64,000 nucleotides of DNA. Source: Rhodocyclales bacterium (GTDB lineage Bacteria > Pseudomonadota > Gammaproteobacteria > Burkholderiales > Rhodocyclaceae). A program made the translations under genes and the position numbers. The notes under the pieces were generated by a model, which was not told the DNA's origin, made no database searches, and worked only from the letters and a program-made list of their open reading frames with translations. Positions 1,509-59,846 of this stretch are shown here, piece by piece; position 1 is the first letter of the stretch; every line of letters begins with the position of its first letter. Where the stretch lies: NCBI GenBank assembly GCA_016214145.1, contig JACRPA010000010.1, positions 62,001 through 126,000 of the forward strand. The letters run 5' to 3'.

Positions 1509-1531
1509 AAAGTCAGTCCCGGCGCCACGGC
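1509..1531 (-). repeat. bipartite repeat GCCGT-N8-GACTGACTTT, copy 1
   Basis: Spacer GGCGCCGG. The NUDIX gene stop codon TGA lies inside the motif. Confidence 0.85.
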
Positions 1532-2028
1532 GCCGTTGCGTCGCGGATGACGCCGTAAAACCATTCGTCGATCGCCGCGCCGCTCGCCGGCGGCGGCTCC
1601 TGCGGCCATTCGTCCGGCGCGAAGAGGCCGGCCTCGATGGCATCGTCGCCTGCCGCCAGGACGCCGCCGATGACGTGGGCGCGGTAGGCGACGATCAGCA
1701 CGTTCACGTCGGCGCGCGAATACACGTCGAGCAGCCCGTCGAGCGCGATCTCCAGCCCCGTCTCTTCCCGCGCCTCGCGCAGCACCGCTTCGGGCACCGA
1801 CTCGCCCGTCTCGACATAGCCGGCCGGCGGCGCCCAGTAGCCGGCAAGCGGATCGGCCAGACGGCGGATCAGCACCAGCCTGCCTTCGTGTTCGATCAGC
1901 GCCATGCCCACCGGCGTCGGGTTGCGCCAGGCCACCGCGCCGCAGCGCTCGCATTGCTCGCGCAATTTGCCGTCGGCAAAAGTCAGTGCCACCAGTACGG
2001 CGCCGCAGTGCTGGCAGTGCCGCTGCAT
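1513..2028 (-). CDS. NUDIX hydrolase with N-terminal zinc ribbon
   Basis: 171 residues. The N-terminus has a zinc ribbon, C-x2-C (CQHC) and C-x2-C (CERC), then a complete Nudix box G-x5-E-x7-REAREETGL at about residues 70-92. The enzyme would hydrolyse a nucleoside diphosphate linked to another moiety. ATG at 2028 follows the riboflavin kinase stop by a few bases; a longer frame starting at 2055 would overlap that gene. Its place between riboflavin kinase/UbiX and an FMN-binding protein suggests a substrate such as FAD, or dimethylallyl diphosphate to give the dimethylallyl phosphate that UbiX uses. That is inference; housecleaning of nucleotides is the conservative alternative. Confidence 0.85.
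   Translation of the reverse strand: MQRHCQHCGAVLVALTFADGKLREQCERCGAVAWRNPTPVGMALIEHEGRLVLIRRLADPLAGYWAPPAGYVETGESVPEAVLREAREETGLEIALDGLLDVYSRADVNVLIVAYRAHVIGGVLAAGDDAIEAGLFAPDEWPQEPPPASGAAIDEWFYGVIRDATAPWRRD
1979..2001 (-). repeat. bipartite repeat GCCGT-N8-CACTGACTTT, copy 2
   Basis: Spacer ACTGGTGG, C in place of the first G. Inside the NUDIX coding region, read as V-L-V-A-L-T-F. Confidence 0.8.
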
Positions 2029-2032
2029 CCGT

Positions 2033-2440
2033 TCAACACACCACGCTGACGGCAACGCTGTCGCCGTCGCCCACGCCGAGCGCCTGGCGCATCGGCACGG
2101 CGGAGACGACCTCGAACTTGTCCGCCGGGTAGCCCGGCACCTCGGGGAACACCACCGCGCCGGTGATGCAGCCGCCGACCACGACGAGAAAGCACTTCGC
2201 CGCGCAGAAGCCGGCCTCGGGCGTGATGACGATGCCGGCCTCGCGCGCCATGACGCGCCGCGCCTCGTCCCAGTCCGGCCCGCTCATGTGCAGGTTGAAG
2301 GTGCCCGGGTAGGGCTCGAAGCCCAGCTTGGCGAGGAATTCGCGCCGCACCCACTCCAGCCGGGTGAAGTTCGCACCCTCGCCCAGGCCCGTGCAGGCCT
2401 CGCCGACCAGCAGCAGCGTTTCGGTTTCGGTCACCGTCAT
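2033..2440 (-). CDS. CTP-dependent riboflavin kinase (archaeal RibK/DUF120 type)
   Basis: 135 residues that match the archaeal CTP-dependent riboflavin kinase pattern: TGLGEGANF near the start, LGFEPYPGTFNL around residues 39-50, and a C-terminal half with FPEVPGYPADKFEVV followed by LGVGDGDSVAV. The family phosphorylates riboflavin to FMN with CTP. It is unusual outside archaea. ATG at 2440 is preferred over 2461 because GGGAG lies about 9 bases upstream of it. The gene lies between ubiX-like and NUDIX genes. FMN is the direct substrate of UbiX, so this enzyme probably feeds prenyl-FMN synthesis for the UbiD-type carboxylases (inference). Family call is strong; nucleotide donor not proven. 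Confidence 0.85.
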   Translation of the reverse strand: MTVTETETLLLVGEACTGLGEGANFTRLEWVRREFLAKLGFEPYPGTFNLHMSGPDWDEARRVMAREAGIVITPEAGFCAAKCFLVVVGGCITGAVVFPEVPGYPADKFEVVSAVPMRQALGVGDGDSVAVSVVC

Positions 2441-2474
2441 GGCCGCATCTCCCGCAAACATGGCATCAAGGTTC

Positions 2475-2533
2475 TGTAGGAGCCGCCTTGGCGGCGATAC
2501 GGCCGCCGCATCGCCAGCAAGCTGGCTCCTACA
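2475..2533. repeat. REP-like inverted pair (GTAGGAGC type)
   Basis: Two inverted units, TGTAGGAGCC...GGCGAT and ATCGCC...GGCTCCTACA, fill the gap between the riboflavin kinase and ubiX-like genes. Same head as the GTGGGAGC REPs elsewhere in the window. Probable transcribed hairpin within the operon. Confidence 0.8.
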
Positions 2534-12369: not shown

Positions 12370-12392
12370 GCCGTATCCGGGAGACTGACTTT
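12370..12392 (+). repeat. bipartite repeat GCCGT-N8-GACTGACTTT, copy 3
   Basis: Spacer ATCCGGGA. It lies between the sigma54 promoter and the putative upstream activator sites. Confidence 0.85.
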
Positions 12393-14342: not shown

Positions 14343-14813
14343 ATGGGCGCATCGCTTCGCGAGCGCGTGCTCGCCTTCCTCGCCGAGCACCATGTGCTGA
14401 CACTGTCGACCGTCGGCGCCGACGGCCCCTGGGCGGCGGCGGTGTTCTACGCCCACGACGACCTGAAACTGTACTTCCTCTCCTCGCCGACCTCGCGCCA
14501 CGCCGAATGCCTCGCCGCCGATCCGCGCGTGGCGGCGACCATCCAGCGCGACTACGACGACTGGCCCGGCATCCGCGGCCTGCAGCTCTCCGGCACGGCG
14601 CGCGCCGTCGCGCCCGCGGACGAGGCGCGCGTGCGCGCCCTCTACCAGCAGCGCTACCCCCTCGTCGGCGGCGGCGCCGGCGTGCCGCGCGCGATCATGG
14701 AAGCGCTGAACAAAATCCGCTGGTACGAACTGGTGCCGGAGGATATCTGGCTCATCGACAACACGCTGGGCTTCGCCCATCGCGAACACCTGTCGCCGTC
14801 CTGCGGCGACTGA
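14343..14813 (+). CDS. pyridoxamine 5'-phosphate oxidase-family protein
   Basis: 156 residues with a split-barrel FMN-binding pattern: LAEHHVLTLSTVGADGPWAAAVFY, then LKLYFLSSPTSRHAECLAADPRVAATIQRDYDDW and GLQLSGTARAV. It is close to the YhbP-like branch. The ATG at 14343 is one base after the activator stop, so the two are cotranscribed. It is a second split-barrel protein in the phenol region, unrelated in detail to the one at 1.0-1.5 kb. The stop codon falls in a copy of the bipartite repeat. Function unknown. Confidence 0.8.
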   Translation: MGASLRERVLAFLAEHHVLTLSTVGADGPWAAAVFYAHDDLKLYFLSSPTSRHAECLAADPRVAATIQRDYDDWPGIRGLQLSGTARAVAPADEARVRALYQQRYPLVGGGAGVPRAIMEALNKIRWYELVPEDIWLIDNTLGFAHREHLSPSCGD

Positions 14814-14817
14814 CTTT
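14795..14817 (+). repeat. bipartite repeat GCCGT-N8-GACTGACTTT, copy 4
   Basis: Spacer CCTGCGGC. It contains the stop codon of the preceding gene and marks the left edge of the low-GC accessory block. The right edge has a near-identical copy (20534-20556). Confidence 0.85.
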
Positions 14818-14968
14818 TCTACAGCTTGAGGCCGAGCGGCTTGCGGCCGCTTCTCGGCCGAAGAGGACGTCCGGGTTTCGATCTGCTTAGTCCGCTGTAT
14901 CATGAGCGGACACTAAAAAGAGTAGGAGCCGATCTTTCATGTGTGTTCCAATCCGGTACCGATCTCGC

Positions 14969-16381
14969 TCACACACTCTTATGAATCGCTTCAGCCAGCG
15001 CTCGACGTTTTTGTACTAACGCAAGATGCTCTGCGTAGAATTCTTTCTCGTCTTCCACCGATTGCTCAAGCAGTGAGACTAACTCCTTCTCGGCCTTAGG
15101 CAAGGTTAGCCAGGGCACGTCATCCTCCGCAGTCAGGAGGCGGCGTGCCAGGAAGATATCCAGTTCTAGGCGATACTTAGCATCCAGCACGTCAGGACGT
15201 TCAGTATGGATCAGATGATAGCCAAGCTGTCTTAGTCTTGCGTCTTCAAATCGGCCGACGATTGCAGCCCGCTTTTCCCATGGAGCCGCGTGGAACTCGG
15301 CAAACAAATGCTGATCGTCTTCCGGGAAGAAACTGTCGTAGAGTTGCTTTTCAACGTGCGGAGACCGCTGTTCCACTACCTTTGATGATTCGAGTAACGT
15401 GACCAAGCGATCACAAAAATCATCGTTGCTCTGAAGTACGTCTACCCGTCGTTCCAGTTCGTCGTAGTGAGGAGCCTTGTCCAAGACGAAAGCTGGCGCA
15501 GTTTCGTACGGCATCAGCATAGGACTTGCGTTGCAGCGCACAGATCGAACGGCTTTTGGCTGCGCGCCGATACGGCTGAGTAGGTCGATATCGTCCAGCT
15601 CCATCAGTTCGTCGGGGGCGACTGAGAGGTCGTAAATGTAATAACTCGCAGAGTTAGTTGCGCTCTGGCGCAGTCCGGTTGCCAAGCACGAAAACGGCTT
15701 TCCAAAATAGAAGTCTGAAAAGCTGAAGATCGGCTCTGAAGACACATAATCGATAGCCGCAGCTTTATTGCTGAAGCGCATAAATGACGACCATACTTCC
15801 GGGGCATTTCCCAATAGAAGGCGACAAATAAAAATGGTCGCCTCAACGTCCGCCAACGCATCATGTGCATATTGGTGGTTATAGCCGTTAGCGGACGCCA
15901 CTGCTTCTAGCTTGAAACTGGGCCGGCCTTTTGCTCCCTTCGGAATACGTATCGCCTCTGGACAAAAGAGGTGAGTCGCTTGTGTCATTCGCAACACGTC
16001 CGAGCGACTATTGCCGTTCGTGTTCGTCAGATACGGCACATGCAATGTCTTGTAGAATGAGGATCGAAGCAGGTGTTCATCGAACTCAATAGAGTTGTAG
16101 CCGAGAAACATGGACGGGGACCAAACCGATAGCTTTTGCTGGATGCGGCACATCATCTCGTAGTGGGATGGGAGGCTCGGATCTACAAGCTGTGCAGCTT
16201 TAACGCCGGTTATCCGCATTGCCCCGGGAGAGGGGACGACGTTTGGAAGTATTCGACTCCGTATTTCGAATCGGTCGATCTCGTTTAGCTCATCGTCTGT
16301 ATAGATTGCCGCGAATTGCAGGATTTGGTCGAACGTCGTTTCGATTCCAGTCGTTTCTGTATCGTAGAAAACGTATCCCAT
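14969..16381 (-). CDS. sbcB: exonuclease I (SbcB-like 3'-5' ssDNA exonuclease)
   Basis: 470 residues, close to the 475 of E. coli ExoI. DEDDh motifs are visible: FYDTETTG at 5-12, YNSIEFDEHLL near 95, and HDALADVEAT near 175. The SH3-like and C-terminal domains follow (PFSCLATG ..., LELDIFLARRLL near the end). It degrades single-stranded DNA 3' to 5'. Here it is not in a repair operon but in a lower-GC block beside a ubiquitin-like operon and XRE/ImmA genes, so it may be horizontally acquired and defence-linked (inference). A chromosomal second copy could exist elsewhere. Confidence 0.88.
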   Translation of the reverse strand: MGYVFYDTETTGIETTFDQILQFAAIYTDDELNEIDRFEIRSRILPNVVPSPGAMRITGVKAAQLVDPSLPSHYEMMCRIQQKLSVWSPSMFLGYNSIEFDEHLLRSSFYKTLHVPYLTNTNGNSRSDVLRMTQATHLFCPEAIRIPKGAKGRPSFKLEAVASANGYNHQYAHDALADVEATIFICRLLLGNAPEVWSSFMRFSNKAAAIDYVSSEPIFSFSDFYFGKPFSCLATGLRQSATNSASYYIYDLSVAPDELMELDDIDLLSRIGAQPKAVRSVRCNASPMLMPYETAPAFVLDKAPHYDELERRVDVLQSNDDFCDRLVTLLESSKVVEQRSPHVEKQLYDSFFPEDDQHLFAEFHAAPWEKRAAIVGRFEDARLRQLGYHLIHTERPDVLDAKYRLELDIFLARRLLTAEDDVPWLTLPKAEKELVSLLEQSVEDEKEFYAEHLALVQKRRALAEAIHKSV

Positions 16382-16554
16382 AAATCCCCCTGGCGGTTTG
16401 ACCGTCTGCTACCTACATATATGCCATCATCGTGCCTCGAACAAATCTGAATATCAAGGAGGGATGTAGCAGTCGAACGGCAGCCACTACCGAAAACAAA
16501 AAAAGCGCGAAGAATTTCGCGCCCTTCTGTGCACCCGGGAAGGGGAGACCTAGC

Positions 16555-17073
16555 CTATCCTCGCATTTTATATTCAAGCATTTGCTTACTAACACGGAAC
16601 TTCTTCGCCAGTTTCTCCAATGGTTCGGGATCGTCAATATCGAAAGTGCTGTTCGCTAACAGATCGTCGATGAGGAACGATGGTAGCAATAGCTCCGCAG
16701 CGAACTTGTTGGCCTCAATTTCTATTGCATCCGTTCCAGTCGACGAGTTGGTGTCCCGCATGAGAATCTTGAACTGTTTATCGACGTGAACTTCACTGGA
16801 CAACAGTTCCCTGTGCAACATGTAATGCCCAAGCTCATGCGCAATTGTGAAGCGCTGTCGATTCGGGTGGTGCAACGCATTCACTCCGATAATTGGAGCA
16901 CCGTCCTTCACATACACCATTCCCGAGAGTTCCTCGTCTAACGGTGAAAACCGCAGTTGTACGCCAAGCGCCTTAGCGATCTTCTCAACCGGGATAGGTG
17001 CACTGCGAATACCCTGGGATTCAAGAAGCTCGCGCGCTACGTTTCTGGGGTCTTGCTTTCGCCGAATATTCAT
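16555..17073 (-). CDS. ImmA/IrrE-type zinc metallopeptidase
   Basis: 172 residues with the HExxH motif in RFTIAHELGHYML at about residues 77-89 and a second metal ligand region ANKFAAELLLP near 130. This family cleaves XRE-type repressors of mobile elements. The start is uncertain: ATG at 17073 (MNIRRKQDP) is used, GTG at 17082 is the alternative. Either way the gene overlaps the 3' end of the XRE gene by 50-60 bases in another frame, so the pair is coupled. Likely a derepression switch for the adjacent accessory genes. Confidence 0.9.
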   Translation of the reverse strand: MNIRRKQDPRNVARELLESQGIRSAPIPVEKIAKALGVQLRFSPLDEELSGMVYVKDGAPIIGVNALHHPNRQRFTIAHELGHYMLHRELLSSEVHVDKQFKILMRDTNSSTGTDAIEIEANKFAAELLLPSFLIDDLLANSTFDIDDPEPLEKLAKKFRVSKQMLEYKMRG

Positions 17074-17422
17074 CACCTTCACCCGATTGGTTGGTCTCGC
17101 CCTCTGATCCCATAAGCATTAAGCGGGCAACTTGCTCTTTCTGCTGCGTATTCAGCCCTGCAGGCAGTGGAAGCTTTCCGAGGTCGGAATTAGGAATTGG
17201 ATTCTTAAGGGCGAGTAGAAAATCCCCTGGCTCAAGGTCGAGCGCGGCAGCCAAGATGTAGAGCTGATGAACCAGCACATTTTGGCGACCAGTCTCAATG
17301 CTGGCCAGTGACGCCCGCGACATTGCAAGTCGCTTGGCGAGCTTTTCCTGCGTGAACCGCAGTTGCTTCCTGCGACTCTTTATCAGCGACCCAATGTGCT
17401 TATAGATCAGCTCGCTTTTCAT
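17021..17422 (-). CDS. XRE-family transcriptional repressor
   Basis: 133 residues with an N-terminal Cro/C1 helix-turn-helix (LRFTQEKLAKRLAMSRASLASIETGRQN, about 21-48). The tail is hydrophilic and probably flexible, a usual target for ImmA cleavage. It is transcribed away from the ubiquitin-like operon; the intergenic region holds two palindromes that may be its operators. ATG at 17422 has a TTGACA box about 30 bases upstream on the same strand. Probable autoregulator and repressor of the divergent operon. Confidence 0.88.
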   Translation of the reverse strand: MKSELIYKHIGSLIKSRRKQLRFTQEKLAKRLAMSRASLASIETGRQNVLVHQLYILAAALDLEPGDFLLALKNPIPNSDLGKLPLPAGLNTQQKEQVARLMLMGSEGETNQSGEGDEYSAKARPQKRSARAS

Positions 17423-17452
17423 TGGAAAAGTATGTCATAGCAGCACTCGTAT

Positions 17453-17512
17453 TGTCAATATTGATCACATTGTGATTATAAAGCACGGTGGTACTGTGCT
17501 TATTACTTGACA
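17453..17512. promoter_or_regulatory. divergent promoter/operator region of the XRE gene and ubiquitin-like operon
   Basis: Minus-strand TTGACA (17453-17458 as TGTCAA) faces the XRE gene. Plus-strand TTGACA (17507-17512), with a weak TGTAAA 16 bases on, faces the Ubl gene. Palindromes ATCACA-T-TGTGAT (17464-17476) and AAGCAC-N9-GTGCTT (17481-17501) lie between them, placed to let one repressor block both promoters. Confidence 0.6.
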
Positions 17513-17629
17513 ATCTGCGTTATGGCTCTGTAAAGTGATGGCCGTGAACAGAGCCAGAAGTGTGCCAATACCGCTGAGCTATTTCTGGGGACCTAAAACG
17601 TAATTGCTCAAATCCGCAAGGAGACAGCC

Positions 17630-18100
17630 ATGAAGAAACTGATGATTGAACTCGAATCGAAAGGCAAGATCGCTCAACTTGAGCTCGATGAGCCAAGCGT
17701 CGAACGGCTCGTGCAGTTGGCAAGGCAGCATGACGGCGACGAGAATGCGCTTGTTTTCGAGAAGGGCAAGGACGAGCAACTGCATAGCGTCGACGGTAGG
17801 AACGCAATTTCGGTTGTTGTACACCGGTGTAAAAAGGTCTCGGTAAGCGTAAATTTCGAGCACCGCACGGAAACCGAGATGTTTCCCCCGGCCGCAACCA
17901 TCTTCCGTGTTCTCCGCTGGGCCATCGGTCACAAGGCGTTCAACCTTGACGAGACAGCGCGCGCCAAGGCGAACCTTATGATCGCCGGCCAAGAATCGCC
18001 ACTCCCGCGAGAGGACTCTCTTGCCAAGTACGTCTCCGGCGATACATGCAGCTTGACCCTAGAACTCACGTTGAGGGATTTCACGAATGGAGCTGAATGA
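17630..18100 (+). CDS. tandem ubiquitin-like protein (BilA-like candidate)
   Basis: 156 residues that read as two beta-grasp domains: residues 1-68 (LMIELESKGKIAQLEL, helix SVERLVQLARQH) and 69-156 (VSVSVNFEHRTE, helix ATIFRVLRWAIGH, then NLMIAGQ and a last strand SLTLELTLRD). Two fused Ubl domains recall ISG15 and the BilA proteins of the Bil antiphage systems. The C-terminus is TNGAE, so a conjugatable glycine would be exposed only after removal of two residues, a job the JAMM protease next door could do. An AAGGAG site precedes ATG 17630. No direct motif proves Ubl identity; the call rests on predicted strand order and the E2/JAMM/E1 neighbours. Confidence 0.68.
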   Translation: MKKLMIELESKGKIAQLELDEPSVERLVQLARQHDGDENALVFEKGKDEQLHSVDGRNAISVVVHRCKKVSVSVNFEHRTETEMFPPAATIFRVLRWAIGHKAFNLDETARAKANLMIAGQESPLPREDSLAKYVSGDTCSLTLELTLRDFTNGAE

Positions 18101-18593
18101 CCAAAGCCCTGACCGGAAAACGCTTGAGGTGCACCTAGGAGCTGTCAGGTTTCTAGTCGGCCAGGAACAAGGGCGTTGGGAAATGCTCCAGATTGACTTC
18201 CCCCACCTCTACGTTCGCATTAAGGGAACTGACCCTGAAACGGGTAGCTCAACCACGCAGGACTTCCACCTGCTCTGTGATGGTTATCCACTGCCAGGTC
18301 CATTCGTCGAGCGGTGGGATTTTGCCCAAGGCTGCCGCCCATCTCCTCCTAAAGCCGGTTGCTGTTCGCCTGGTTTTTGCGACGCCCTAAAGGACTGGGA
18401 TCATGAAAATCGTCATGGCGGAATCTACCGAGCATGGCAGCGCTACGCAGCGGTTCACAACGACTGGGCGAACAAACGGCCGGACGAAGCGTGGCATCAG
18501 AACAGACAAATTGCGTTTATTTTGGAGAAGCTCCATGAGCTCGTGGTTGAGCAGGCTGTTTGGTTGGGTATTAGGCAGCAGCAAGCAGCCTAG
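18087..18593 (+). CDS. E2-like ubiquitin-conjugating protein (BilB-like candidate)
   Basis: 168 residues. The first half has the E2 order of strands: LEVHLGAVRFLVG, WEMLQIDFPHLYVRI, DFHLLCDGYPLPGPFVERWD, ending in a GYP-x-x-GP turn like the YPxxPP of E2 enzymes. Cysteines follow in CCSPGFCDALKDW; the last is the best candidate for the active site. The C-terminal half is helical (RAWQRYAAVHNDW; ILEKLHELVVEQ). It overlaps the Ubl gene by 14 bases and the JAMM gene by 59 bases. It would accept the Ubl from the E1-like protein and pass it to a target. Assignment is by fold pattern and operon context only. Confidence 0.62.
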   Translation: MELNDQSPDRKTLEVHLGAVRFLVGQEQGRWEMLQIDFPHLYVRIKGTDPETGSSTTQDFHLLCDGYPLPGPFVERWDFAQGCRPSPPKAGCCSPGFCDALKDWDHENRHGGIYRAWQRYAAVHNDWANKRPDEAWHQNRQIAFILEKLHELVVEQAVWLGIRQQQAA

Positions 18594-19053
18594 GCTCGTC
18601 TGCGAGCGGCGCATATGGTCCGCTGGCGTGGAAGAGTTGAGGCGGCGAACACTTGGCGGCCGTCGAGAGAGTGGTGCTTTTTTGCTTGGACGCGACGAGG
18701 ATGGCACAAAGCGGATCCTCGAGTTTGTCTTTTACGACGATATCGATCCGGATGCTCTTAGGTCAGGAATTGTACATTTCGCTGGCGCAAGGCTCTCAAG
18801 GTTATGGGCCATCTGCCGAACTCGGGGCTTTGGTGTGGTAGCCGACGTGCACGTTCATCCGGGCGGATACCAGCAAAGCCCGTCCGACCAAGCCGATCCG
18901 GTTATACCACGCGCTGGACATCTAGCCATTATCCTTCCGCACTTCGCGAGTCGAGAAGCAGTGCCCGGCAGCATCGGCATGTACGAATACTGCGGCAATG
19001 GGCGCTGGCTCACTCACACATCGTTAGGTCGAGCATTTTTCACCCTGCACTAA
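18535..19053 (+). CDS. JAMM/MPN+ metalloprotease (BilD-like deconjugase candidate)
   Basis: 172 residues. The metal site HVHPGGYQQSPSDQAD (HxHP-x7-S-x2-D) is complete, with an upstream acidic residue in RRESGAFLLG or the FVFYDD stretch. ATG at 18535 is chosen because GGAG lies seven bases upstream; the longer frame would overlap most of the E2-like gene. JAMM proteases next to E1 and Ubl genes remove or mature ubiquitin-like proteins. Here it probably trims the TNGAE tail of the Ubl or reverses conjugation. The N-terminal 25 residues (MSSWLSRLFGWVLG) are hydrophobic and might associate with the membrane. Confidence 0.85.
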   Translation: MSSWLSRLFGWVLGSSKQPRLVCERRIWSAGVEELRRRTLGGRRESGAFLLGRDEDGTKRILEFVFYDDIDPDALRSGIVHFAGARLSRLWAICRTRGFGVVADVHVHPGGYQQSPSDQADPVIPRAGHLAIILPHFASREAVPGSIGMYEYCGNGRWLTHTSLGRAFFTLH

Positions 19054-19057
19054 CGCC

Positions 19058-20398: not shown

Positions 20399-20533
20399 GG
20401 CGATCGGAGCGCGGATTTTCATATACGCTGGCCGCTCTGGAATCCATAGCGGGCGCAATGGAGCGAAACACCTGAGTCGGCTTTGGCCGAGAACCGGAAG
20501 AACTCGGCGTTCCGCCCTTGCGGATAGTTATTC

Positions 20534-20556
20534 GCCGTCCTGCGGAGACTGACTTT
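20534..20556 (+). repeat. bipartite repeat GCCGT-N8-GACTGACTTT, copy 5
   Basis: Spacer CCTGCGGA. Right boundary of the accessory block; differs at one base from copy 4 over some 26 bases. It lies in the gap between the E1-like gene and toxin-antitoxin pair 1. Confidence 0.85.
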
Positions 20557-21221: not shown

Positions 21222-21244
21222 GCCGTCCCGAGGCGACTGACTTT
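21222..21244 (+). repeat. bipartite repeat GCCGT-N8-GACTGACTTT, copy 6
   Basis: Spacer CCCGAGGC. Located exactly between the two toxin-antitoxin pairs, ending four bases before the operator of pair 2. Confidence 0.85.
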
Positions 21245-21783: not shown

Positions 21784-21806
21784 GCCGTACTGCAGGGACT
21801 GACTTT
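21784..21806 (+). repeat. bipartite repeat GCCGT-N8-GACTGACTTT, copy 7
   Basis: Spacer ACTGCAGG. Closes the toxin-antitoxin block; followed 14 bases later by a GTAGGTCGG element. Confidence 0.85.
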
Positions 21807-27527: not shown

Positions 27528-27550
27528 GCCGTCCCCTGCAGACTGACTTT
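27528..27550 (+). repeat. bipartite repeat GCCGT-N8-GACTGACTTT, copy 8
   Basis: Spacer CCCCTGCA. Forms most of the leader of the symporter gene. Confidence 0.85.
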
Positions 27551-30749: not shown

Positions 30750-31096
30750 GCGATCCGTTGGTCGAACTGCGCGACCGGCTGCGCGCCTTCACGCGCGAGC
30801 GCGAGTGGGACCGCTACCACACGCCGAAGAACCTGGCGATGGCGCTGATCGTGGAAGCGGCCGAACTGGCCGAGCATTTCCAGTGGCTGACGCCGGAGCA
30901 AAGTCAGTCCCCGGAGGACGGCAAGCGCGAGAAAATCCGCGAGGAGCTGGCCGACGTGCTGATCTATCTGGTGGAACTGGCCGACACGCTGGAGGTCGAC
31001 CTGATCGCCGCCGCCCGCGACAAGATCGAAAAGAACGCGCTGAAATACCCTGTCGACAAGGCGCGCGGCAACGCGAAGAAATACGACGAACTATGA
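30746..31096 (+). CDS. MazG-like nucleotide pyrophosphohydrolase
   Basis: 116 residues of the all-alpha NTP pyrophosphatase group (dCTPase/RS21-C6-like). Metal-binding helices: ALIVEAAELAEHFQWL (E-x3-E) and KIREELADVLIYLVELAD (EE-x3-D). It hydrolyses non-canonical or surplus (d)NTPs to monophosphates. Starts within the VanZ stop (ATGA). The loop EQSQSPEDGK is encoded by bipartite repeat copy 9. Confidence 0.92.
   Translation: MSDPLVELRDRLRAFTREREWDRYHTPKNLAMALIVEAAELAEHFQWLTPEQSQSPEDGKREKIREELADVLIYLVELADTLEVDLIAAARDKIEKNALKYPVDKARGNAKKYDEL
30900..30922 (-). repeat. bipartite repeat GCCGT-N8-GACTGACTTT, copy 9
   Basis: Spacer CCTCCGGG. Inside the MazG-like coding region, antisense to the gene; no insertion relative to the usual loop length is evident. 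Confidence 0.85.
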
Positions 31097-31455: not shown

Positions 31456-32192
31456 TGTCGCGTCACGAGCGCGTCCTGCTCGACGGGCCGGCCGGCGCGG
31501 TCGAAGTCTTCGTCGAGGCGCCACTTCAGCCGGCGCCGGGCCGCCCCAAGCCGGCTGAGTCGTACGCCATGGAGCGAAGCGAACAACCGTCACCCCCTTC
31601 CCCGGGAAGGGGGCCGGGGGGATGGCCCATCGAGGGCATCGCGCTGATCGCCCACCCGCACCCGCTCTACGGCGGCACGGCGGACAACAAGGTGGTCACC
31701 ACGCTGGCGAAAGCCTTCCGCGACCTGGGCTGCGCCACGCTGCGCCCCAACTTCCGCGGCGTCGGCGCCTCGGAAGGCAGCCACGACCACGGCATCGCCG
31801 AAACCGACGACCTTGCCGCGGTGCATGCCTACGCCCGCACGCGCTTCGGCGCGAACCTGCCGTTCTTCCTCGGCGGCTTCTCCTTCGGCGCCTACGTGAT
31901 CACCCGTCTGGCGCAGCGGCTCGCCCAGGCCGGCGATCCGGCGCGGCGCCTGGTGCTGGTCGGCACCGCTTCAGGCTACGTCGAGGGCGCGCGCAGCTAC
32001 GTCACCGAAGCGGTCGCGTCCGACAGCATCGTCATCCACGGCGACCGCGACGAAACCGTGCCGCTCGGCAACGTCCTGGCCTGGGCCGAGCCGCTCGACC
32101 TGGCGGTCAGCGTGGTACCCGGCGCCGACCACTTCTTCCACCGCAAGCTGCACGTGATCCGCCGCATCATCGAGTCGCAATGGAAACCCTGA
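31455..32192 (+). CDS. alpha/beta hydrolase with in-frame repeat insertion
   Basis: 245 residues. Family motifs [39 protein letters not shown], nucleophile in [18 protein letters not shown] and catalytic His in GADHFFH place it with the CPBP/dienelactone-like small hydrolases that often follow this ferredoxin. Residues 28-56 ([15 protein letters not shown], then PSPPSPGRG) are foreign to the family and are encoded by a dispersed repeat (31538-31621). The overlap with the ABC gene start suggests an operon. Confidence 0.88.
31538..31621 (+). repeat. GRPK-type dispersed repeat, inside the hydrolase gene
   Basis: GGGCCGCCCCAAG at the left, then a variable middle, then TCACCCCCTTCCC hairpin with GGGAAGGGGG. 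Translates as GRPK...[14 protein letters not shown]. Other copies near 38.4, 53.5 and 57.9 kb. Confidence 0.88.
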
Positions 32193-33103
32193 GCGTCAGC
32201 GGACTGCGCAAGTCCTACGGCGACATTGCCGTCCTGGCGGGACTGACTTTCGAGCTGCGCCCCGGGGAATGCTACGGCCTGCTCGGCCCGAACGGCGCCG
32301 GCAAGACCACCACGCTGCGCTGCGCCCTCGGCCTGACCCGGCCCGACGCGGGCGAGATCCGCCTGTCCGGCCTGCCGGTGCCGGAACGCGCGCGCGAAGC
32401 GCGCATGCGCGTCGGCATCGTGCCGCAGATGGACAACCTCGATCCGGATTTCACGGCGGCGGAGAACCTGCTGGTGTATGGCCGCTACTTCGGCCTGGCC
32501 GAGCGCACGGTGCGTGAGCGCATCCCGCGCCTGCTCGACTTCGCCGGGCTGGCCGGCCGCGCCGACGCGAAAATCAACACGCTCTCCGGCGGCATGAAGC
32601 GGCGGCTGACGCTGGCGCGCGCACTGGTGAACGACCCGGACGTGCTGTTCCTCGACGAGCCGACCACCGGCCTCGACCCGCAGGCGCGCCACCTGATCTG
32701 GGAGCGCCTGAAACAATTGCTGCAGCAGGGCAAGACGGTGCTGCTGACGACGCACTTCATGGACGAGGCCGAGCGCCTCTGCCACCGCCTCGCCATCATG
32801 GATCGCGGTCGCTTCATCGCCGAGGGCTCGCCGCGCGAGGTGATCGCCGCGCACATCGAGCCGGAGGTGGTGGAGGTGTATGGCGAACCGGGCGAGACCA
32901 GCGCCGCGGATTGGGCCAAAGCCGAAGCGGCGCAGTTCGCCACCCGCGTCGAGGTCACCGGCGAGACGGCCTTCTGCTACCTGACCGAATCGCGCCCCCT
33001 GCTGCGCCACCTCGCCGGCCGGCAGGGCCTGCGCTACCTGCACCGGCCGGCGAACCTGGAAGACGTTTTCCTCAAGCTGACGGGGAGGGAGTTGCGTGAT
33101 TAA
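32180..33103 (+). CDS. ABC transporter ATPase, NodI-like
   Basis: 307 residues. Walker [10 protein letters not shown]-loop PQMDN, signature [15 protein letters not shown], Walker [16 protein letters not shown]-loop TTHFMDEAE. The extra C-terminal 70 residues and the sequence [15 protein letters not shown] are like NodI/DrrA exporters. Its permease lies 570 bases downstream, separated by a transposase and REPs. It overlaps the hydrolase by 13 bases. Exported substrate unknown; a polyketide/lipo-oligosaccharide type is only suggested by the family. Confidence 0.92.
32228..32250 (+). repeat. bipartite repeat GCCGT-N8-GACTGACTTT, copy 10
   Basis: Spacer CCTGGCGG. Within the ABC ATPase gene, read as I-A-V-L-A-G-L-T-F, a position where relatives have similar residues. 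Confidence 0.85.
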
Positions 33104-36706: not shown

Positions 36707-37297
36707 GTGTTTTCCGGAATCGTCGCCGCCGTCGGCAGGATCGCCCATCTGCAAGCCCTGGAGAAAGGCCTGCGCCTGACCGTCGAGGCGCCCGGCCTCG
36801 ATCTCTCCGACGTGGCCCCGGGCGACTCGATCGCCCACGGCGGGGTCTGCCTGACCGTCATCGAGAAGGCCGGCGCCGCCTACAAGGTGGACGTCTCGCG
36901 CGAGACGCTGGACTGCACCGTCGGCCTGGACGCGCCCGGCGAGGTGAACCTGGAGAAGGCGCTGCGCCTGGCCGACCGCCTCGGCGGCCACCTGGTGACG
37001 GGCCACGTGGACGGCGTCGGCGAGGTGCTCAAGTTCGAGCGCATCGGCGAGAGCCACGAGCTGCTGGTCCGCGCGCCGAAGCCGCTGGCGAAGTACATCG
37101 CGCGCAAGGGCTCGATCACGGTGGACGGCGTCAGCCTGACGGTGAACCGTGTCGCGGGGACTGACTTTTCCATCAACCTGATTCCGCATACGGTGACGGT
37201 GACGACGCTCAAGCGCCTGCAGGCCGGCAGCCGGGTCAATCTCGAAATCGACCTCGTCGCCCGCTACATCGAGCGCATGATGACCGCGGAAAACTGA
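36707..37297 (+). CDS. ribE: riboflavin synthase alpha chain
   Basis: 196 residues in two homologous barrels: MFSGIVAAVGRI ... DSIAHGGVCLTVIE and then GGHLVTGHVDGVGEV ... SITVDGVSLTVNRV ... NLIPHTVTVTTL. It dismutates two lumazines to riboflavin. The start is GTG at 36707, where the family begins MFTGIV. A TAAAAT hexamer lies about 40 bases upstream. First gene of ribE-ribB-ribH. Residues G-T-D-F are encoded by bipartite repeat copy 11. No FMN riboswitch fits in the 69-base leader. Confidence 0.95.
   Translation: MFSGIVAAVGRIAHLQALEKGLRLTVEAPGLDLSDVAPGDSIAHGGVCLTVIEKAGAAYKVDVSRETLDCTVGLDAPGEVNLEKALRLADRLGGHLVTGHVDGVGEVLKFERIGESHELLVRAPKPLAKYIARKGSITVDGVSLTVNRVAGTDFSINLIPHTVTVTTLKRLQAGSRVNLEIDLVARYIERMMTAEN
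37146..37168 (+). repeat. bipartite repeat (A)CCGT-N8-GACTGACTTT, copy 11
   Basis: Spacer GTCGCGGG; first base A instead of G. Inside ribE, with no length change in the protein. Confidence 0.8.
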
Positions 37298-39822: not shown

Positions 39823-40782
39823 GTGCCTTCCGAATTCGAACTGATCGCCCGTCACTTCACCCGCTCCGTCCGGCACACCGTGCTGGGCGTCGGCGACGAC
39901 GGCGCCATTGTGCGCCCGTCGCCCGGCATGGACCTGGTGGTATCCACCGACATGCTGGTCGCCGGTACGCATTTCCTGCCCGATGCCGATGCCGAGGCGC
40001 TGGGCTGGAAATCCCTCGCCGTAAACCTTTCCGACCTCGCCGCCATGGGCGCGCAACCGCGCTGGGCCGTGGTGGCGGCGGCCCTGCCGGAACCCGATGA
40101 AACCTGGATCGCCGCCTTCGCGCGCGGCTTCTTCGCCGCCGCCGCGGCCTTCGACGTCGACGTGATCGGCGGCGACACGACGCGCGGGCCGCTCAACATC
40201 GCGCCGACCGTGTTCGGCGAAGTGCCGCAAGGGCAGGCGCTCACCCGTGCCGGCGCGCAGGCGGGCGACGAGCTCTGGGTTTCGGGCGCGCCCGGGCGCG
40301 CGGCGCTGGGACTCGCCCACCGCCTGGGAAAAGTCAGTCTCCACGACACGGCGATGGCGCCCTGCCTGGCCGCGCTGGATCGCCCGCAACCCCGGGTCGG
40401 GCTCGGACTCGCCCTGCGCGGCCTGGCCAGCGCCGCCATCGACGTCTCCGACGGCCTGCTCGCCGACATCGGCCACATCCTGGAACGCTCCGCCCTGGCG
40501 GCCGACATCGAATCCGCCCGCCTGCCGCGCGCGGCGTTCGAGGCCTGCGCCGACGCCGCGCTGGCGCAGGGCTGCCTGCTCGCCGGCGGCGACGACTACG
40601 AGCTGGCCTTCAGCGCCCCGGCCGCGCGGCGCGGGGACATCGAGGCGCTGTCCGCGAGACTCGGCCTGCCGCTGACGCGCATCGGCAGCCTGCGGGCGGG
40701 GCCGGCCGGCGAACTGATCCTGCGCGATGCCGCCGGCCAGCCGATGCCCGTCGGCCGGCGCGGCTTCGACCATTTCGCATGA
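39823..40782 (+). CDS. thiL: thiamine-monophosphate kinase
   Basis: 319 residues. FELIARHF, GVGDDGAIVRP, STDMLVAGTHFL, NLSDLAAMGAQPRW, IGGDTTRGPLNI and IDVSDGLLADIGHI are diagnostic. It makes thiamine diphosphate from thiamine monophosphate. The start is GTG at 39823 (MPSEFELI), with GGAAG nine bases upstream; this matches the family N-terminus better than any ATG. Confidence 0.95.
   Translation: MPSEFELIARHFTRSVRHTVLGVGDDGAIVRPSPGMDLVVSTDMLVAGTHFLPDADAEALGWKSLAVNLSDLAAMGAQPRWAVVAAALPEPDETWIAAFARGFFAAAAAFDVDVIGGDTTRGPLNIAPTVFGEVPQGQALTRAGAQAGDELWVSGAPGRAALGLAHRLGKVSLHDTAMAPCLAALDRPQPRVGLGLALRGLASAAIDVSDGLLADIGHILERSALAADIESARLPRAAFEACADAALAQGCLLAGGDDYELAFSAPAARRGDIEALSARLGLPLTRIGSLRAGPAGELILRDAAGQPMPVGRRGFDHFA
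40330..40352 (-). repeat. bipartite repeat GCCGT-N8-GACTGACTTT, copy 12
   Basis: Spacer GTCGTGGA. Inside thiL, antisense to the gene, read there as K-V-S-L-H-D-T-A. Confidence 0.85.
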
Positions 40783-47686: not shown

Positions 47687-48346
47687 ATGCGTCGCACCCG
47701 TTTGCCGCTCGCCGTCCTGTCCGCACTGACTTTGGCCCTGACGTGCGGCAGCGCCAGCGCCTTCAAATTTTCCGAGGAAGAGGAAAAGGCCAAAACCGAG
47801 GACCAGGCCCGCGCCCAGCGCATCGGCCAGCTCGTCTCGACGCCCTGCAAGCAGCAACTGAAGAACCAGAAGATCATGCTGGTGATCGCCGAGCGCACGG
47901 CGAACGGCTACAACACCACGCAGAGCCGCTACGGCCCGCACTTCCAGGCCATCAATCACCGCCTGCGCGCCCTCGGCCTGAAGACCACCACCCAGGAGGA
48001 GATCCGGGCGCAGATCGCCCAGGCGGAACTCGAAGCGCATTTCCGCAACGACCCGGATGCCGCCATCAATGCCTCGAAGAAGCTCGGCGCCAATTTCATC
48101 CTGCGCGGCCTGATCACGACGCAGACCGGCATCAACCCGGTGCTGAAGATCAACGAGGTCGCCGTGCACATGGGCTTCACGCTCGTCTCCTCCGGCGGCA
48201 AGACGATTTCCAGCGTCGCGGCCAAAGCCGACTCCTATTCCGGCACCGACACGCTCGGCATGGCGCTCACCCTGGTGAACGAAGAGGCCGACGAAGCGGT
48301 CGCCCGGCTCTACAATGACTACTGTCGCATCGCTGCCAAAAAATAA
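47687..48346 (+). CDS. exported protein of unknown function
   Basis: 219 residues with signal peptide MRRTRLPLAVLSALTLALTCGSASA, cleaved near 25. The mature part begins with a charged stretch (FKFSEEEEKAKTEDQARAQR), then alternating strands and helices (KIMLVIAER; SRYGPHFQAINHRLRALGLK; KLGANFILRGLITT). It has no motif I recognise, though the layout (nucleation of a varied periplasmic domain next to a CsgG-like protein) suggests the two act together. ATG 47687 gives the signal peptide. The signal peptide codons include bipartite repeat copy 13. Confidence 0.8.
   Translation: MRRTRLPLAVLSALTLALTCGSASAFKFSEEEEKAKTEDQARAQRIGQLVSTPCKQQLKNQKIMLVIAERTANGYNTTQSRYGPHFQAINHRLRALGLKTTTQEEIRAQIAQAELEAHFRNDPDAAINASKKLGANFILRGLITTQTGINPVLKINEVAVHMGFTLVSSGGKTISSVAAKADSYSGTDTLGMALTLVNEEADEAVARLYNDYCRIAAKK
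47711..47733 (+). repeat. bipartite repeat GCCGT-N8-CACTGACTTT, copy 13
   Basis: Spacer CCTGTCCG; C at the first core base. Encodes A-V-L-S-A-L-T-L of a signal peptide. Confidence 0.8.
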
Positions 48347-54423: not shown

Positions 54424-55572
54424 ATGAGTTTGCCCCTGCCAGATACTGCCGCCGCTGAAAGCAGCGCCCGCCTAGTTGCGCGCATCGTCGCAGAAATTGA
54501 TAAGGCCGGCGGCTGGATTCCCTTCTCCCGCTTCATGGAGCTGGCGCTCTACGCGCCCGGCCTCGGCTACTACAGTGGCGGCGCGCGCAAATTCGGCGGC
54601 GCCGGCGATTTCGTCACCGCGCCCGAGCTCTCGCCGCTGTTCGCCCAAACCCTCGCCGCCCAGGTGGCGCAGCTCATGGCGGCGAGCGCGCCGCACCTCC
54701 TGGAGGCCGGCGCCGGCAGCGGCGCCCTGGCGCTCGGCCTGCTGCTGGAACTGGAACGGCGCGGCGCGCTGCCCGAGCACTACGACATCCTCGAACTCTC
54801 CGGCGAATTGCGCGCGCGGCAGCAGGAGACCCTCGCCCGCGGCGCCCCGCACCTGGCCGGGCGGGTCCGCTGGCTGGACGCCCTGCCGGAGAGTTTCAGC
54901 GGCGCGGTCGTCGCCAACGAGCTGCTCGACGCGCTGCCGGTCGATATCGTCGCCTGGCGCGAGGAGGGCATTTTCGAGCGCGGCGTGGCGCTGGAGGACG
55001 GCGCCTTCGCCTGGCGGGAGCGCCCCGCCGCGGGCGCGCTGCTCGCCGTGTCGCAGGGACTGACTTTTGTCCGGCCGCCCTATGTCTCGGAGATCAACCT
55101 CGCCGCGCGCGCCTGGATCGCCGAGTGGGGCCGCATCCTGCAGTGCGGCGCCCTGCTGCTGATCGACTACGGCTTCCCGCAGCGCGAGTACTACCATCCG
55201 CAGCGCGCCGAAGGCACGCTGATGTGCCACTACCGCCACCACGCCCACGGCGACCCGTTCTGGCTGCCCGGCCTCAACGACATCACCGCCCACGTCGACT
55301 TCACCGCCGTCGCCGAAGTCGGCCACGACGCCGGACTGGATGTGCTCGGCTACACCAGCCAGGCGCAATTCCTCCTCAACTGCGGCCTGGCGCAGTTGCT
55401 GGAACAGCGACAGGCGGACGGTGCGACGGCCTACGCCGCGCTCGCCTCCGGCGCGCAAAAGCTCATCAGCCCCGCCGAGATGGGCGAGCTGTTCAAGGTG
55501 CTGGCACTGGGGAAGGGAATCGGCGAGCCCTTGCTCGGGTTCGCGCATGGCGATCGCTGCCACGCGCTCTGA
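54424..55572 (+). CDS. SAM-dependent methyltransferase, NDUFAF7/MidA family
   Basis: 382 residues: IPFSRFMELALYAPGLGYYSGGARKFG near the start, DFVTAPELSPLF, SAM loop LLEAGAGSGALALGLL, VVANELLDALPVDIV and LLIDYGFPQREYYHPQRAEGTLMCHYRHH are the family blocks. Mitochondrial relatives methylate an arginine of complex I; bacterial targets are unknown. Divergent from the SDR. Contains bipartite repeat copy 14. Confidence 0.93.
   Translation: MSLPLPDTAAAESSARLVARIVAEIDKAGGWIPFSRFMELALYAPGLGYYSGGARKFGGAGDFVTAPELSPLFAQTLAAQVAQLMAASAPHLLEAGAGSGALALGLLLELERRGALPEHYDILELSGELRARQQETLARGAPHLAGRVRWLDALPESFSGAVVANELLDALPVDIVAWREEGIFERGVALEDGAFAWRERPAAGALLAVSQGLTFVRPPYVSEINLAARAWIAEWGRILQCGALLLIDYGFPQREYYHPQRAEGTLMCHYRHHAHGDPFWLPGLNDITAHVDFTAVAEVGHDAGLDVLGYTSQAQFLLNCGLAQLLEQRQADGATAYAALASGAQKLISPAEMGELFKVLALGKGIGEPLLGFAHGDRCHAL
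55045..55067 (+). repeat. bipartite repeat GCCGT-N8-GACTGACTTT, copy 14
   Basis: Spacer GTCGCAGG. In the methyltransferase gene, read as L-A-V-S-Q-G-L-T-F. Confidence 0.85.
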
Positions 55573-58265: not shown

Positions 58266-58891
58266 TTCGGCACGGCCATGCCGCGCTGCACGGCCGGACG
58301 GTTGGCGACGGCCTTGAACCAGCGCAGGACGTTCGGGTAGCTGGACAGGGCGACGTCGTGCCACTCGTGGCGCGCCACCCAGGGGAAGGTCGCCATGTCG
58401 GCGATCGAGTACTCGTCGGCGAGGTATTCGTGCTGCGACAGGCGGGCGTTCAGCACGCCGTAGAGCCGCGCCGTTTCCCTGGTGTAGCGGCCGATGGCGT
58501 AATCTACCTTCTCCGGGGCGTAGCGCAGGAAATGGTGGGTCTGGCCGAACATCGGCCCGACGCCGCCCATCTGGAACATCAGCCACTGCAGGGCCTCGTA
58601 CTTGCCGCGCACCGAGGCGGGCAGGAAGCGGCCGGTCTTGCCGGCGAGATACACCAGGATGGCGCCGGATTCCATCATGCGCATCGGCCGCTTTTTCGTC
58701 CCTTCGTCGGGCCCGTCGGGGTCGACGATGGACGGAATTTTTCCATTCGGGTTGATGGCAAGGTAGGCGGGCGCGAACTGCTCGCCCTGCGTGATGTCGA
58801 TCTTGTGCACCCGGTAGGGCAGGCCGCATTCCTCCAGCATGATGGAAACCTTGCGGCCGTTGGGCGTACCCCATGTGTATAGTTCGATCAT
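58262..58891 (-). CDS. glutathione S-transferase family protein
   Basis: 209 residues. Thioredoxin-like N-terminal domain (IELYTWGTPNGRKVSIMLEECGLPY; NPNGKIPSIVDPDG; RMMESGAILVYLAGK, the GSH-binding ESxAI) and alpha-helical C-terminal domain (YSIADMATFPWV N-capping box). Close to YghU/YfcG (Nu-class) disulfide reductases, with T/N in the active-site TPNG. ATG 58891. Confidence 0.93.
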   Translation of the reverse strand: MIELYTWGTPNGRKVSIMLEECGLPYRVHKIDITQGEQFAPAYLAINPNGKIPSIVDPDGPDEGTKKRPMRMMESGAILVYLAGKTGRFLPASVRGKYEALQWLMFQMGGVGPMFGQTHHFLRYAPEKVDYAIGRYTRETARLYGVLNARLSQHEYLADEYSIADMATFPWVARHEWHDVALSSYPNVLRWFKAVANRPAVQRGMAVPK

Positions 58892-58904
58892 TGCGTACCT
58901 TTCC

Positions 58905-59822
58905 TCACTGCCGATGCTGAAGTGGCTGATTGCCCTGCTGATCACGGTCCTGATTGCCGGCGTCTTCCTGCCGCGGCTGGCCGCCTTCCTGCGCATCGGC
59001 CGCCTGCCGGGGGACGTCAGCTTCCGCTTTCGCGGGCGCCTCTGCCACTTTCCCTTCGGCACCACCCTGCTGCTCTCCCTGCTGGCGACGCTGCTGTTCC
59101 GCCTGCTGTAAGGTCATTTCGAATTCCTGCCAGCCCTGCGGCGTCCACTGGAACAGCCGGCGCGAGACCGGACGGCCCTGGTGCCGCTCCACGGTCTCCA
59201 CGGTGGAACGCAGTTGGTCGATCTTCTCCGGCTCCTGGGTCGACGTGAACACCACCACGTCGCGCGTCGGCATGCCGAGGATGAGCAGGTCGCCATGCTT
59301 CAGGGTCAGTTCCGCCCAGCGCCAGTGCAGCAGGACGCGGCTGGCCGCATAGCCGTCCGTGGTTTCGATCACGTTCAGCCAGGGCAGCTTGCCGACCTGC
59401 TTGATGGCGATCTCGCCGTGCGCGCGGTCGAGGTTGGCCAGGGCGCGCTGGTGCAGCCGATCCGGATCCATGCCCCAGGATTCCATCATGCCGTGCGAGA
59501 CCAGTTGCGCGCCTTCCTTGTATTCGAGGGCATACATGATCTGCACGTCGGCGAGGAAATCGCGCACCACCAGGGAATTGTCTTCGTACCAGGGGCCGGG
59601 ATTCTCCATGTCGCGGCTCATGCGCGCCAACTGCACGGCGAAGCGCTTGCGCGCCTGGTCCATGTAGCGCTTGCCGATCAGCACAGGCCGCAGGGCCGCC
59701 AGCGCCTCCTCGGCGCTGCGCGCCGGCGCGGTTTCCGCCGGCTTCTCCGGCACGGGCGGCGTCTCTTCTGCCCGCGCCGGCAGGGCAAGGAACGCCAGGA
59801 ATGCAATGAGCGGCAGCCTCAT
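58905..59822 (-). CDS. DUF1444-like exported protein
   Basis: 305 residues; signal peptide MRLPLIAFLAFLALPARA. The core (about 35-235) resembles the DUF1444 family: LRPVLIGKRYMDQARKRFAVQL, LVVRDFLADVQIMYALE, LGMDPDRLHQRALANLDR-type block, GYAASRVLLHWRWAELTLKHGDLLILGMPTRDVVVF. The last 65 residues are Gln/Glu/Ala-rich and low complexity, and are antisense to the DUF2905 gene, so the true functional end may be near 59120. ATG at 59822, inside bipartite repeat copy 15's flank. Function unknown. Confidence 0.82.
   Translation of the reverse strand: MRLPLIAFLAFLALPARAEETPPVPEKPAETAPARSAEEALAALRPVLIGKRYMDQARKRFAVQLARMSRDMENPGPWYEDNSLVVRDFLADVQIMYALEYKEGAQLVSHGMMESWGMDPDRLHQRALANLDRAHGEIAIKQVGKLPWLNVIETTDGYAASRVLLHWRWAELTLKHGDLLILGMPTRDVVVFTSTQEPEKIDQLRSTVETVERHQGRPVSRRLFQWTPQGWQEFEMTLQQAEQQRRQQGEQQGGAEGKVAEAPAKAEADVPRQAADAQEGGQPRQEDAGNQDRDQQGNQPLQHRQ
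58914..59111 (+). CDS. DUF2905 small membrane protein
   Basis: 65 residues: LKWLIALLITVLIAGVFLPRLAAFLRIGRLPGDVSFRFRGRLCHFPFGTTLLLSLLATLLF. Two helices flank the conserved RIGRLPGDV/FPFGT stretch diagnostic of DUF2905. Complete within the family's length, so it is real although it lies fully antisense to the tail of the DUF1444-like gene. Confidence 0.88.
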   Translation: MLKWLIALLITVLIAGVFLPRLAAFLRIGRLPGDVSFRFRGRLCHFPFGTTLLLSLLATLLFRLL

Positions 59823-59823
59823 G

Positions 59824-59846
59824 AAAGTCAGTCCCCGGAAGACGGC
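59824..59846 (-). repeat. bipartite repeat GCCGT-N8-GACTGACTTT, copy 15
   Basis: Spacer CTTCCGGG. Contains the cca stop codon and ends two bases inside the DUF1444-like start codon region. Confidence 0.85.

What the first reader, a model, noticed from the sequence alone, without database searches (positions are those of the whole stretch)
1509..59846. A bipartite 23-base motif, GCCGT-N8-(G/C)ACTGACTTT, occurs 15 times with a fixed spacer
I found copies at 1509, 1979, 12370, 14795, 20534, 21222, 21784, 27528, 30900, 32228, 37146, 40330, 47711, 55045 and 59824. In every copy exactly eight bases separate the two blocks, although the eight bases vary (consensus near CCTGCGGG). One copy has A for the first G, two have C for the first core G. 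A 10-base string such as GACTGACTTT is expected about 0.1 times in this much DNA. Ten copies are on the plus strand and five on the minus; about half lie inside conserved genes (ribE, thiL, mazG-like, ABC ATPase) with no apparent change in protein length, so the sequence seems to replace rather than insert. Three copies contain a gene's stop codon. This looks like a recognised site: a DNA-uptake signal, a chromosome-organising or recombination site, or a two-part protein or methylase target. I know of no described element of this form.
Basis: seen in the sequence. Interest (0 to 1): 0.87.

Follow-up and report, generated by a model that had tools for sequence, protein, structure and literature searches.

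The report
Split DNA-uptake-type signal in Rhodocyclaceae
A 23-base two-part DNA word is repeated about 360 times across this environmental bacterium's genome, occurs in nearly all the congeners examined and is spelled in a different "dialect" in a related genus, and it most likely marks the cell's own DNA for uptake, like the signals known until now only in two other bacterial families.

Summary
In detail: 15 copies at the stated places, 14 exact. Genome-wide there are 361 exact copies against 1 for the reversed pattern. Only one arm spacing is used: 103 copies in 864 kb against 0-2 at each of 24 others.

The genome belongs to the genus of Ca. Desulfobacillus denitrificans (Rhodocyclaceae). 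The motif occurs 15-397 times in 15 of 16 genomes of that genus and not in G009. G185, of a second genus, has the same arms and spacing with a different middle and 3' flank: a dialect. Elsewhere counts are low, a few genomes excepted. Copies tend to stay at the same places in relatives while the middle varies, favour convergent intergenic gaps and one reading frame, sometimes form inverted-pair hairpins and show no replication-strand polarity.

Best explanation (0.72): a DNA-uptake (self-recognition) signal read by type IV minor pilins, which would be the third family with one. The arms hold the two halves of the Neisseria DUS, GCCGT and CTGA, exactly 10 bases, about one helical turn, apart. 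Uptake is untested, and the ComP-family pilin also occurs in genomes lacking the motif.

The parts
1509..1531 (-). motif copy GCCGT-N8-GACTGACTTT; contains the stop codon of the called gene 1513-2028 (-)
1979..2001 (-). motif copy (CACTGACTTT form), inside called gene 1513-2028, same strand, frame 0
12370..12392 (+). motif copy, intergenic (divergent called genes)
14795..14817 (+). motif copy; contains the stop codon of called gene 14343-14813
20534..20556 (+). motif copy, intergenic by my caller, next to a stretch without called genes
21222..21244 (+). motif copy, intergenic
21784..21806 (+). motif copy, intergenic between convergent called genes; weak hairpin with its flank (z -1.89)
27528..27550 (+). 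motif copy, intergenic; arms intact at the same place in several congeners, eroded in G009
30900..30922 (-). motif copy, inside called gene 30746-31096, opposite strand; intact in several congeners
32228..32250 (+). motif copy, inside an ABC-transporter ATPase gene (called 32180-33103), frame 0; arms kept in several congeners while the middle varies
37146..37168 (+). motif copy with A for the first G, inside called gene 36707-37297
40330..40352 (-). motif copy, inside called gene 39823-40782, opposite strand
47711..47733 (+). motif copy (CACTGACTTT form), inside called gene 47687-48346, frame 0
55045..55067 (+). motif copy, inside called gene 54535-55572, frame 0
59824..59846 (-). motif copy; contains the stop codon of the called gene 59828-61048 (-)

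Best explanation
The motif, full form C-GCCGT-(V Y Y R C G G R G)-ACTGACTTT-T, is a DNA-uptake signal of the Neisseria DUS kind. Inferred mechanism: free DNA from close relatives carries many copies; a DNA-binding minor pilin at the type IV pilus tip, most likely the ComP-family pilin of the minor-pilin cluster (perhaps with FimT), grips the two arms on one face of the helix; the pilus retracts; the strand enters through ComEC and recombines. Biased uptake, followed by recombination that restores mutated copies, spreads and keeps the motif genome-wide (molecular drive). Shown: abundance, fixed spacing, lineage and dialect pattern, placement biases, conservation at orthologous sites, presence of ComEC and a ComP-family pilin. 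Inferred: pilin binding, uptake and drive. The arms look like the two halves of the Neisseria DUS (GCCGT|CTGAA) moved one helical turn apart.
For: 361 exact copies against control 1 in 3.42 Mb. Spacing unique: GCCGT-N10-CTGAC 144 against 0-8 at the 21 other spacings tested. Both strands alike: 175 and 174. ACTGACTTT has the highest over-representation score of the 9-mers in the G000 and G002 samples (46 seen against 0.4 and 0.2 expected). Lineage: 15 of 16 genus genomes carry 15-397 copies. A dialect in another genus (one genome, G185) has the same arms and spacing, a different middle and flank. Placement: 34 of 103 copies intergenic against about 11.5% expected (p 7e-9); 18 of 34 intergenic copies between convergent genes against 15% expected from C3 (p 4e-7); 31 of 35 same-strand coding copies in frame 0 (p 2e-11). 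Inverted partner core within 60 bp upstream of 6 of 123 copies (0.73 expected; 0 downstream; the six copies lie at four places); two such places fold into strong hairpins (z -8.6 and -5.1). Orthologs: arms 94-95% identical against middle 78% and flanks 81-88%. ComEC in 15 of 16 genus genomes; one ComP_DUS-family pilin in each of 18 genomes searched, 0 of 14 control genomes. In IMG/VR 40 contigs hold the G-form pattern, none more than two copies.
Against: No uptake or binding data exist. ComEC and the ComP-family pilin also occur in G009, which has no copy, and the pilin occurs in G121, G033, G117, G214 and G258, which have 0-2, so the machinery does not track the motif. Density (about 1 per 9.5 kb) is below the thousands of copies given for DUS and USS genomes in PMC3630211, though PMC12616744 says hundreds or thousands. 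One-mismatch copies are unevenly spread: 43 in 864 kb against 103 exact, 20 of the 43 being A-to-G at position 15, and none at seven arm positions, where drift should leave some. Depletion from foreign-looking DNA is not seen with crude proxies in C3: the lowest-GC and lowest-coverage tenths have above-average density, the next GC band few. Other competence genes (comEA, dprA, pilQ and so on) were not looked for. The dialect rests on one genome. Sharing GCCGT and CTGA with DUS was noticed afterwards and may be chance.
Confidence: 0.72

Rival explanations
1. A chromosome-organising or segregation site: a cytoplasmic DNA-binding protein uses the copies as anchors across the chromosome (in the manner of Noc, SlmA or MatP sites).
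For: Hundreds of copies, Poisson spacing along 800 kb (CV 0.98 against 0.99 random), both orientations, conserved positions.
Against: The motif is not palindromic, unlike Noc, SlmA and MatP sites (recalled); in G002 copies occur in 15 of 17 sampled 20-kb stretches around the chromosome, so no ori or ter domain shows at that sampling; one species of the genus has none (G009); inverted terminator-like pairs and dialects are not expected.
Confidence: 0.12
2. A polar site read by a translocase or repair enzyme (KOPS- or Chi-like).
For: Asymmetric, abundant, partly intragenic.
Against: No bias to the G-rich strand: 36 of 89 in C3 and 22 of 36 in G002 (together 58 of 125, p 0.47). Local GC skew is a rough guide to the replication arm. 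Total information is 35.5 bits, far above an 8-base Chi or KOPS (lengths recalled).
Confidence: 0.03
3. A restriction-modification or defence self-mark: a modified or protected two-part site.
For: Two-part with a fixed gap, like type I recognition sites.
Against: 14 highly conserved bases plus a constrained middle is about twice a type I site (recalled); such sites are not normally enriched or kept at orthologous places; placement favours convergent gaps. Modification was not tested.
Confidence: 0.04
4. A dispersed repeat or transposon remnant.
For: Many copies; a few stand as inverted pairs.
Against: Little or no shared sequence outside positions -1 to 24; orthologous genes differ at the site by substitutions and small gaps, none of the alignments shown having a clean 23-base gap; no viral contig with more than two copies.
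Confidence: 0.03

Closest known systems
DNA uptake sequence (DUS) of Neisseriaceae, read by the minor pilin ComP (PMC3630211, passages; PMC12616744, abstract and Introduction)
   Same: Genome-wide enrichment; lineage dialects with a conserved core; intragenic copies and inverted intergenic pairs able to form hairpins; a TGA in one frame; both DUS halves, GCCGT and CTGA, present; a ComP_DUS-family minor pilin encoded. The geometry of the pairs, GCCGT ends facing each other, agrees with DUS pairs as I recall them.
   Different: The halves are 10 bases apart rather than adjacent; after CTG comes ACTTTT instead of AA; about 25 positions instead of 10-13; about 360 copies instead of thousands. The contiguous 10-mer GCCGTCTGAA occurs once in 864 kb, like its reversed control.
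Uptake signal sequence (USS) of Pasteurellaceae (PMC12616744, Introduction)
   Same: Long discontinuous motif, genome-wide, with dialects, tied to uptake by type IV pili.
   Different: Unrelated sequence: Hin-USS 1 and Apl-USS 0 in 864 kb, below reversed controls of 8 and 14; here both halves are strictly conserved, whereas the outer USS parts are less conserved AT-rich tracts.

Membership tests
DNA uptake sequences (DUS/USS kind, general) | Hundreds to thousands of copies genome-wide in both orientations, far above chance | tested here: met
   361 against control 1 in G000; 175/174 by strand
DNA uptake sequences (DUS/USS kind, general) | Lineage-bound dialects that share a core | tested here: met
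   G185 dialect GSCGT-ACCRCSACG-ACTGACTTT-C, one genome; genus distribution
DNA uptake sequences (DUS/USS kind, general) | Inverted pairs forming terminator-like hairpins, intergenic bias | tested here: met
   pairs are few: 6 of 123 copies, at four places
DNA uptake sequences (DUS/USS kind, general) | Raises binding, uptake and transformation of DNA that carries it | not testable with these tools
   Needs an uptake assay
DNA uptake sequences (DUS/USS kind, general) | Accumulates in core rather than foreign DNA | tested here: inconclusive
   GC and gene-call proxies in C3 show no clear depletion; core and accessory genes were not compared
Neisseriaceae DUS proper | Contiguous 10-12-mer of the GCCGTCTGAA type | tested here: not met
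   1 copy in 864 kb, equal to the reversed control; only this dialect was counted; the halves occur 10 bases apart
Neisseriaceae DUS proper | Core CTG kept in all dialects | tested here: met
   CTG lies in the right arm in G000 and in G185; in both the arm was used to collect copies, but the k-mer scans find it unaided
Neisseriaceae DUS proper | Read by the minor pilin ComP | tested here: inconclusive
   ComP_DUS-family pilin present, but also in genomes without the motif; binding untested
Pasteurellaceae USS proper | Core AAGTGCGGT or ACAAGCGGT enriched | tested here: not met
   1 and 0 copies in 864 kb
KOPS/Chi-like polar sites | Strong leading-strand bias | tested here: not met
   58 of 125 copies on the G-rich strand, with local GC skew as proxy

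The most novel reading that the evidence does not exclude
A genome-wide self-mark read by an asymmetric two-part DNA reader for something other than DNA uptake, for example a chromosome-anchoring or recombination-guiding system with no described counterpart, able to evolve genus dialects.
Probability: 0.15. Interest if true: 0.9.

Novelty: new variant of a known kind. Interest (0 to 1): 0.82.

Why it matters
[quoted passage not shown] A third family would show that the trait is more widespread, in organisms such as the bioreactor bacterium Ca. Desulfobacillus denitrificans (PMC8402940, search listing). If the halves really are those of the Neisseria DUS set one helical turn apart, it gives a natural variant for testing how ComP-type pilins read DNA. 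Patchy presence within and between genera, with a possible loss in G009, offers a system for studying how such signals begin and die. It would also predict which DNA these bacteria can be transformed with.

Tried and rejected
Rfam on the window: 0 matches. Viral origin: the G-form pattern is in 40 listed IMG/VR contigs, 39 with one copy and one with two; I computed no chance expectation for that collection. Replication polarity, regular spacing and domain restriction: not seen. Covariation in the middle (321 copies, not independent): the strongest pairs are mostly neighbouring columns, a few up to six apart, with no helix-like pattern. A different dialect in G009: the k-mer scan of 354 kb finds other repeats (GTAGGCTGGG, poly-G), nothing related. 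Receptor tracking by presence or absence failed: the ComP_DUS pilin is in all 18 genomes searched. PDB sequence searches with the ComP-like pilin and the FimT-like pilin listed other pilins and pseudopilins only. The genus tree from nine genes was unrooted and partly weakly supported, so I do not say whether G009 is basal; loss in G009 rests on an eroded intergenic copy and on 11 two-mismatch sites in 377 kb against a mean of 1.6 at other spacings. Structure prediction was not tried: my pilin sequences came from a tool that its description does not list as an accepted source. My notebook gives the encoded peptide wrongly; one search gives it as A-V-x-x-x-L-T-F/L.
Full report
OBSERVATION. ACTGACTTT occurs 15 times in the window, at these 15 places and no other. 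With up to one mismatch the count is 519 against 3.

ANATOMY. In 864 kb (800 kb of contig C3 plus the window) 103 exact copies give roughly (T)C-GCCGT-V-Y-Y-R-C-S-G-R-G-ACTGACTTT-T, with little or no shared sequence beyond positions -1 to 24. Of 25 spacings tested (0-24) only 9 is used: 103 copies against 0-2; counted from GCCGT to CTGAC the gap is 10, 144 copies against 0-8 at the 21 other spacings tested. There are 43 one-mismatch copies, 20 of them A-to-G at position 15; seven of 14 arm positions have none. Total information is about 35.5 bits over 123 copies that include the A15G form. The middle preferences hold in the 34 intergenic copies alone, so they are not only a coding effect.

PLACEMENT. 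Genes were called with a simple script of mine, not a standard annotator. Of 103 copies 61 are inside genes, 8 at edges and 34 intergenic; random 23-mers would be 79-86% inside and 11-18% intergenic. Of the 34 intergenic copies 18 lie between convergent genes; that orientation makes up 15% of C3's intergenic placements. Of 35 same-strand coding copies 31 are in one frame; in the C3 copies it reads A-V-x-x-x-L-T-F/L. In 3 of 15 window copies and in 4 C3 copies among those at gene edges the motif contains the gene's own stop codon. Spacing along C3 is Poisson. Orientation does not follow GC skew: 58 of 125. Six of 123 copies, at four places, have an inverted partner core within 60 bp upstream; none has one downstream; 0.73 expected. 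Two of these places were folded and form strong hairpins followed by T's, while the window copy 21784 with its flank does so only weakly, z -1.89.

LINEAGE. A consensus 23-mer search of named genomes gave 46 stretches; 42 are from records titled Ca. Desulfobacillus denitrificans (AP021857), Sulfuritalea sp. PRO1, Rhodocyclaceae or Betaproteobacteria. AP021857 has the same length as G002, a genome of the window's genus. Within that genus 15 of 16 genomes, G000 included, have 15-397 copies and G009 has none; G009 has 6 copies with one mismatch against a control of 1. The low counts in G012 (15) and G013 (38) come from fragmented assemblies. In 395 family genomes (pattern CGT-N9-ACTGACTTT, my estimate of chance about 0.15 per genome) enrichment outside the genus is limited to four of six genomes of genus g90 (80-275 copies; the other two have 1 and 2), G061 (24; its genus-mate G121 has 0), G315 (19) and G326 (5); the rest have 0-3. 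Of 399 genomes across the order only G475 stands out (12 copies, 5 of the 10 listed on one contig, possibly contamination), the others outside the genus having 0-2. Of 369 across the class 9 besides G000 have 1-2 copies. One search reads G185's form from 43 ACTGACTTT sites in 301 kb, at least one of them without a left arm: GSCGT-ACCRCSACG-ACTGACTTT-C. That is the same design with a different middle and flank: a dialect. ACTGACTTT also tops the unaided 9-mer scan there.

EVOLUTION. Across a 20-kb syntenic region, 44 copies from the held sequences of 16 genus genomes were compared with orthologous sites in other genomes, giving 275 comparisons after dropping hits in the same genome, below 72% identity or not spanning 40 bp on each side. 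166 of 275 are intact; 8 more show no arm mismatch but failed the string check. By target genome, G009 has 0 of 21 intact, G012 0 of 12, G013 0 of 24, and the other 13 genomes 166 of 218. In the 195 comparisons without a gap in the motif (80 with a gap set aside), the left arm is 95.4% identical, the right arm 93.7%, the middle 77.6% and the flanks 81.4% and 88.1%. These comparisons are not independent, and they are conditioned on the query having the motif. In the alignments shown differences are substitutions and small gaps, not clean insertion of 23 bases; for example the intergenic site 27528 is intact in several species, with different middles, and eroded in G009. G009 has 11 two-mismatch sites in 377 kb against a mean of 1.6 at other spacings, which suits decay after loss but could also be pre-existing near-matches.

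MACHINERY. ComEC is in 15 of 16 genus genomes (the miss, G012, is 81% complete). Pilin-type N-termini are in 16 of 16. The window genome's minor-pilin cluster holds a 138-residue pilin that matches Pfam ComP_DUS above its cut-off (E 5.9e-9), a GspH-domain pilin of the FimT kind (the FimT label is mine) and PilW. One ComP_DUS pilin was found in each of 18 genomes searched, motif-bearing or not, and in 0 of 14 control genomes. The machinery therefore permits the uptake reading but does not prove it.

COMPARISON WITH THE KNOWN. The Neisseria DUS is GCCGTCTGAA with core CTG (PMC3630211, passages). The present motif has GCCGT, 10 bases, then CTGAC. That is the two DUS halves one helical turn apart, a likeness noticed after the fact that could be chance. 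It works like a DUS but fails the test for DUS proper (contiguous 10-mer) and for USS. PMC12616744 (abstract and Introduction) says only Neisseriaceae and Pasteurellaceae are known to recognise uptake sequences. Searches for 'DNA uptake sequence' or 'uptake sequence' with Rhodocyclaceae, Burkholderiales or Rhodocyclales terms found no paper, and two 10-base strings of the motif occur in 81 papers, of which the 15 listed look unrelated by title. PMC8402940 on Ca. D. denitrificans has none of the words competence, uptake, transformation, pili, repeat or motif in its main text (word search only).

VERDICT. A real recognition sequence kept by selection or drive (near certain, by inference from the above); a DNA-uptake signal of a new two-part form (0.72); receptor most likely a ComP-family minor pilin (a weaker inference).

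Noticed in passing
G009 sample loci L211-L230: G009 lacks the motif but carries another abundant repeat, GTAGGCTGGG (39 copies in 354 kb), and G-runs; G000 has a GTAGGTCGGGCT repeat. These look like common dispersed hairpin repeats (recalled), unrelated to the motif.
   Followed up: no
L043, L065, L068, L069: Contigs titled Bacteroidia, uncultured Acidobacteria, Phycisphaerae and Pseudomonadota carry the consensus 23-mer; L065 and L069 match held genus DNA at 72-74% over part of their length, so mis-binned Rhodocyclaceae contigs are likely; L043 and L068 matched nothing held.
   Followed up: partly
G475 contigs C45 and C8; G1119 contig C39: Clustered copies on single contigs of distant genomes, suggesting contamination or recent transfer.
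   Followed up: no
window 14900-20500: A stretch where my gene caller finds no typical genes and no relative is listed as aligning, the list being capped; motif copies at 14795 and 20534 stand at its ends. Possibly accessory DNA.
   Followed up: no
G000 C3 743106-745448: The called comEC gene itself carries two motif copies, at 743146 and 745333 on the minus strand.
   Followed up: no
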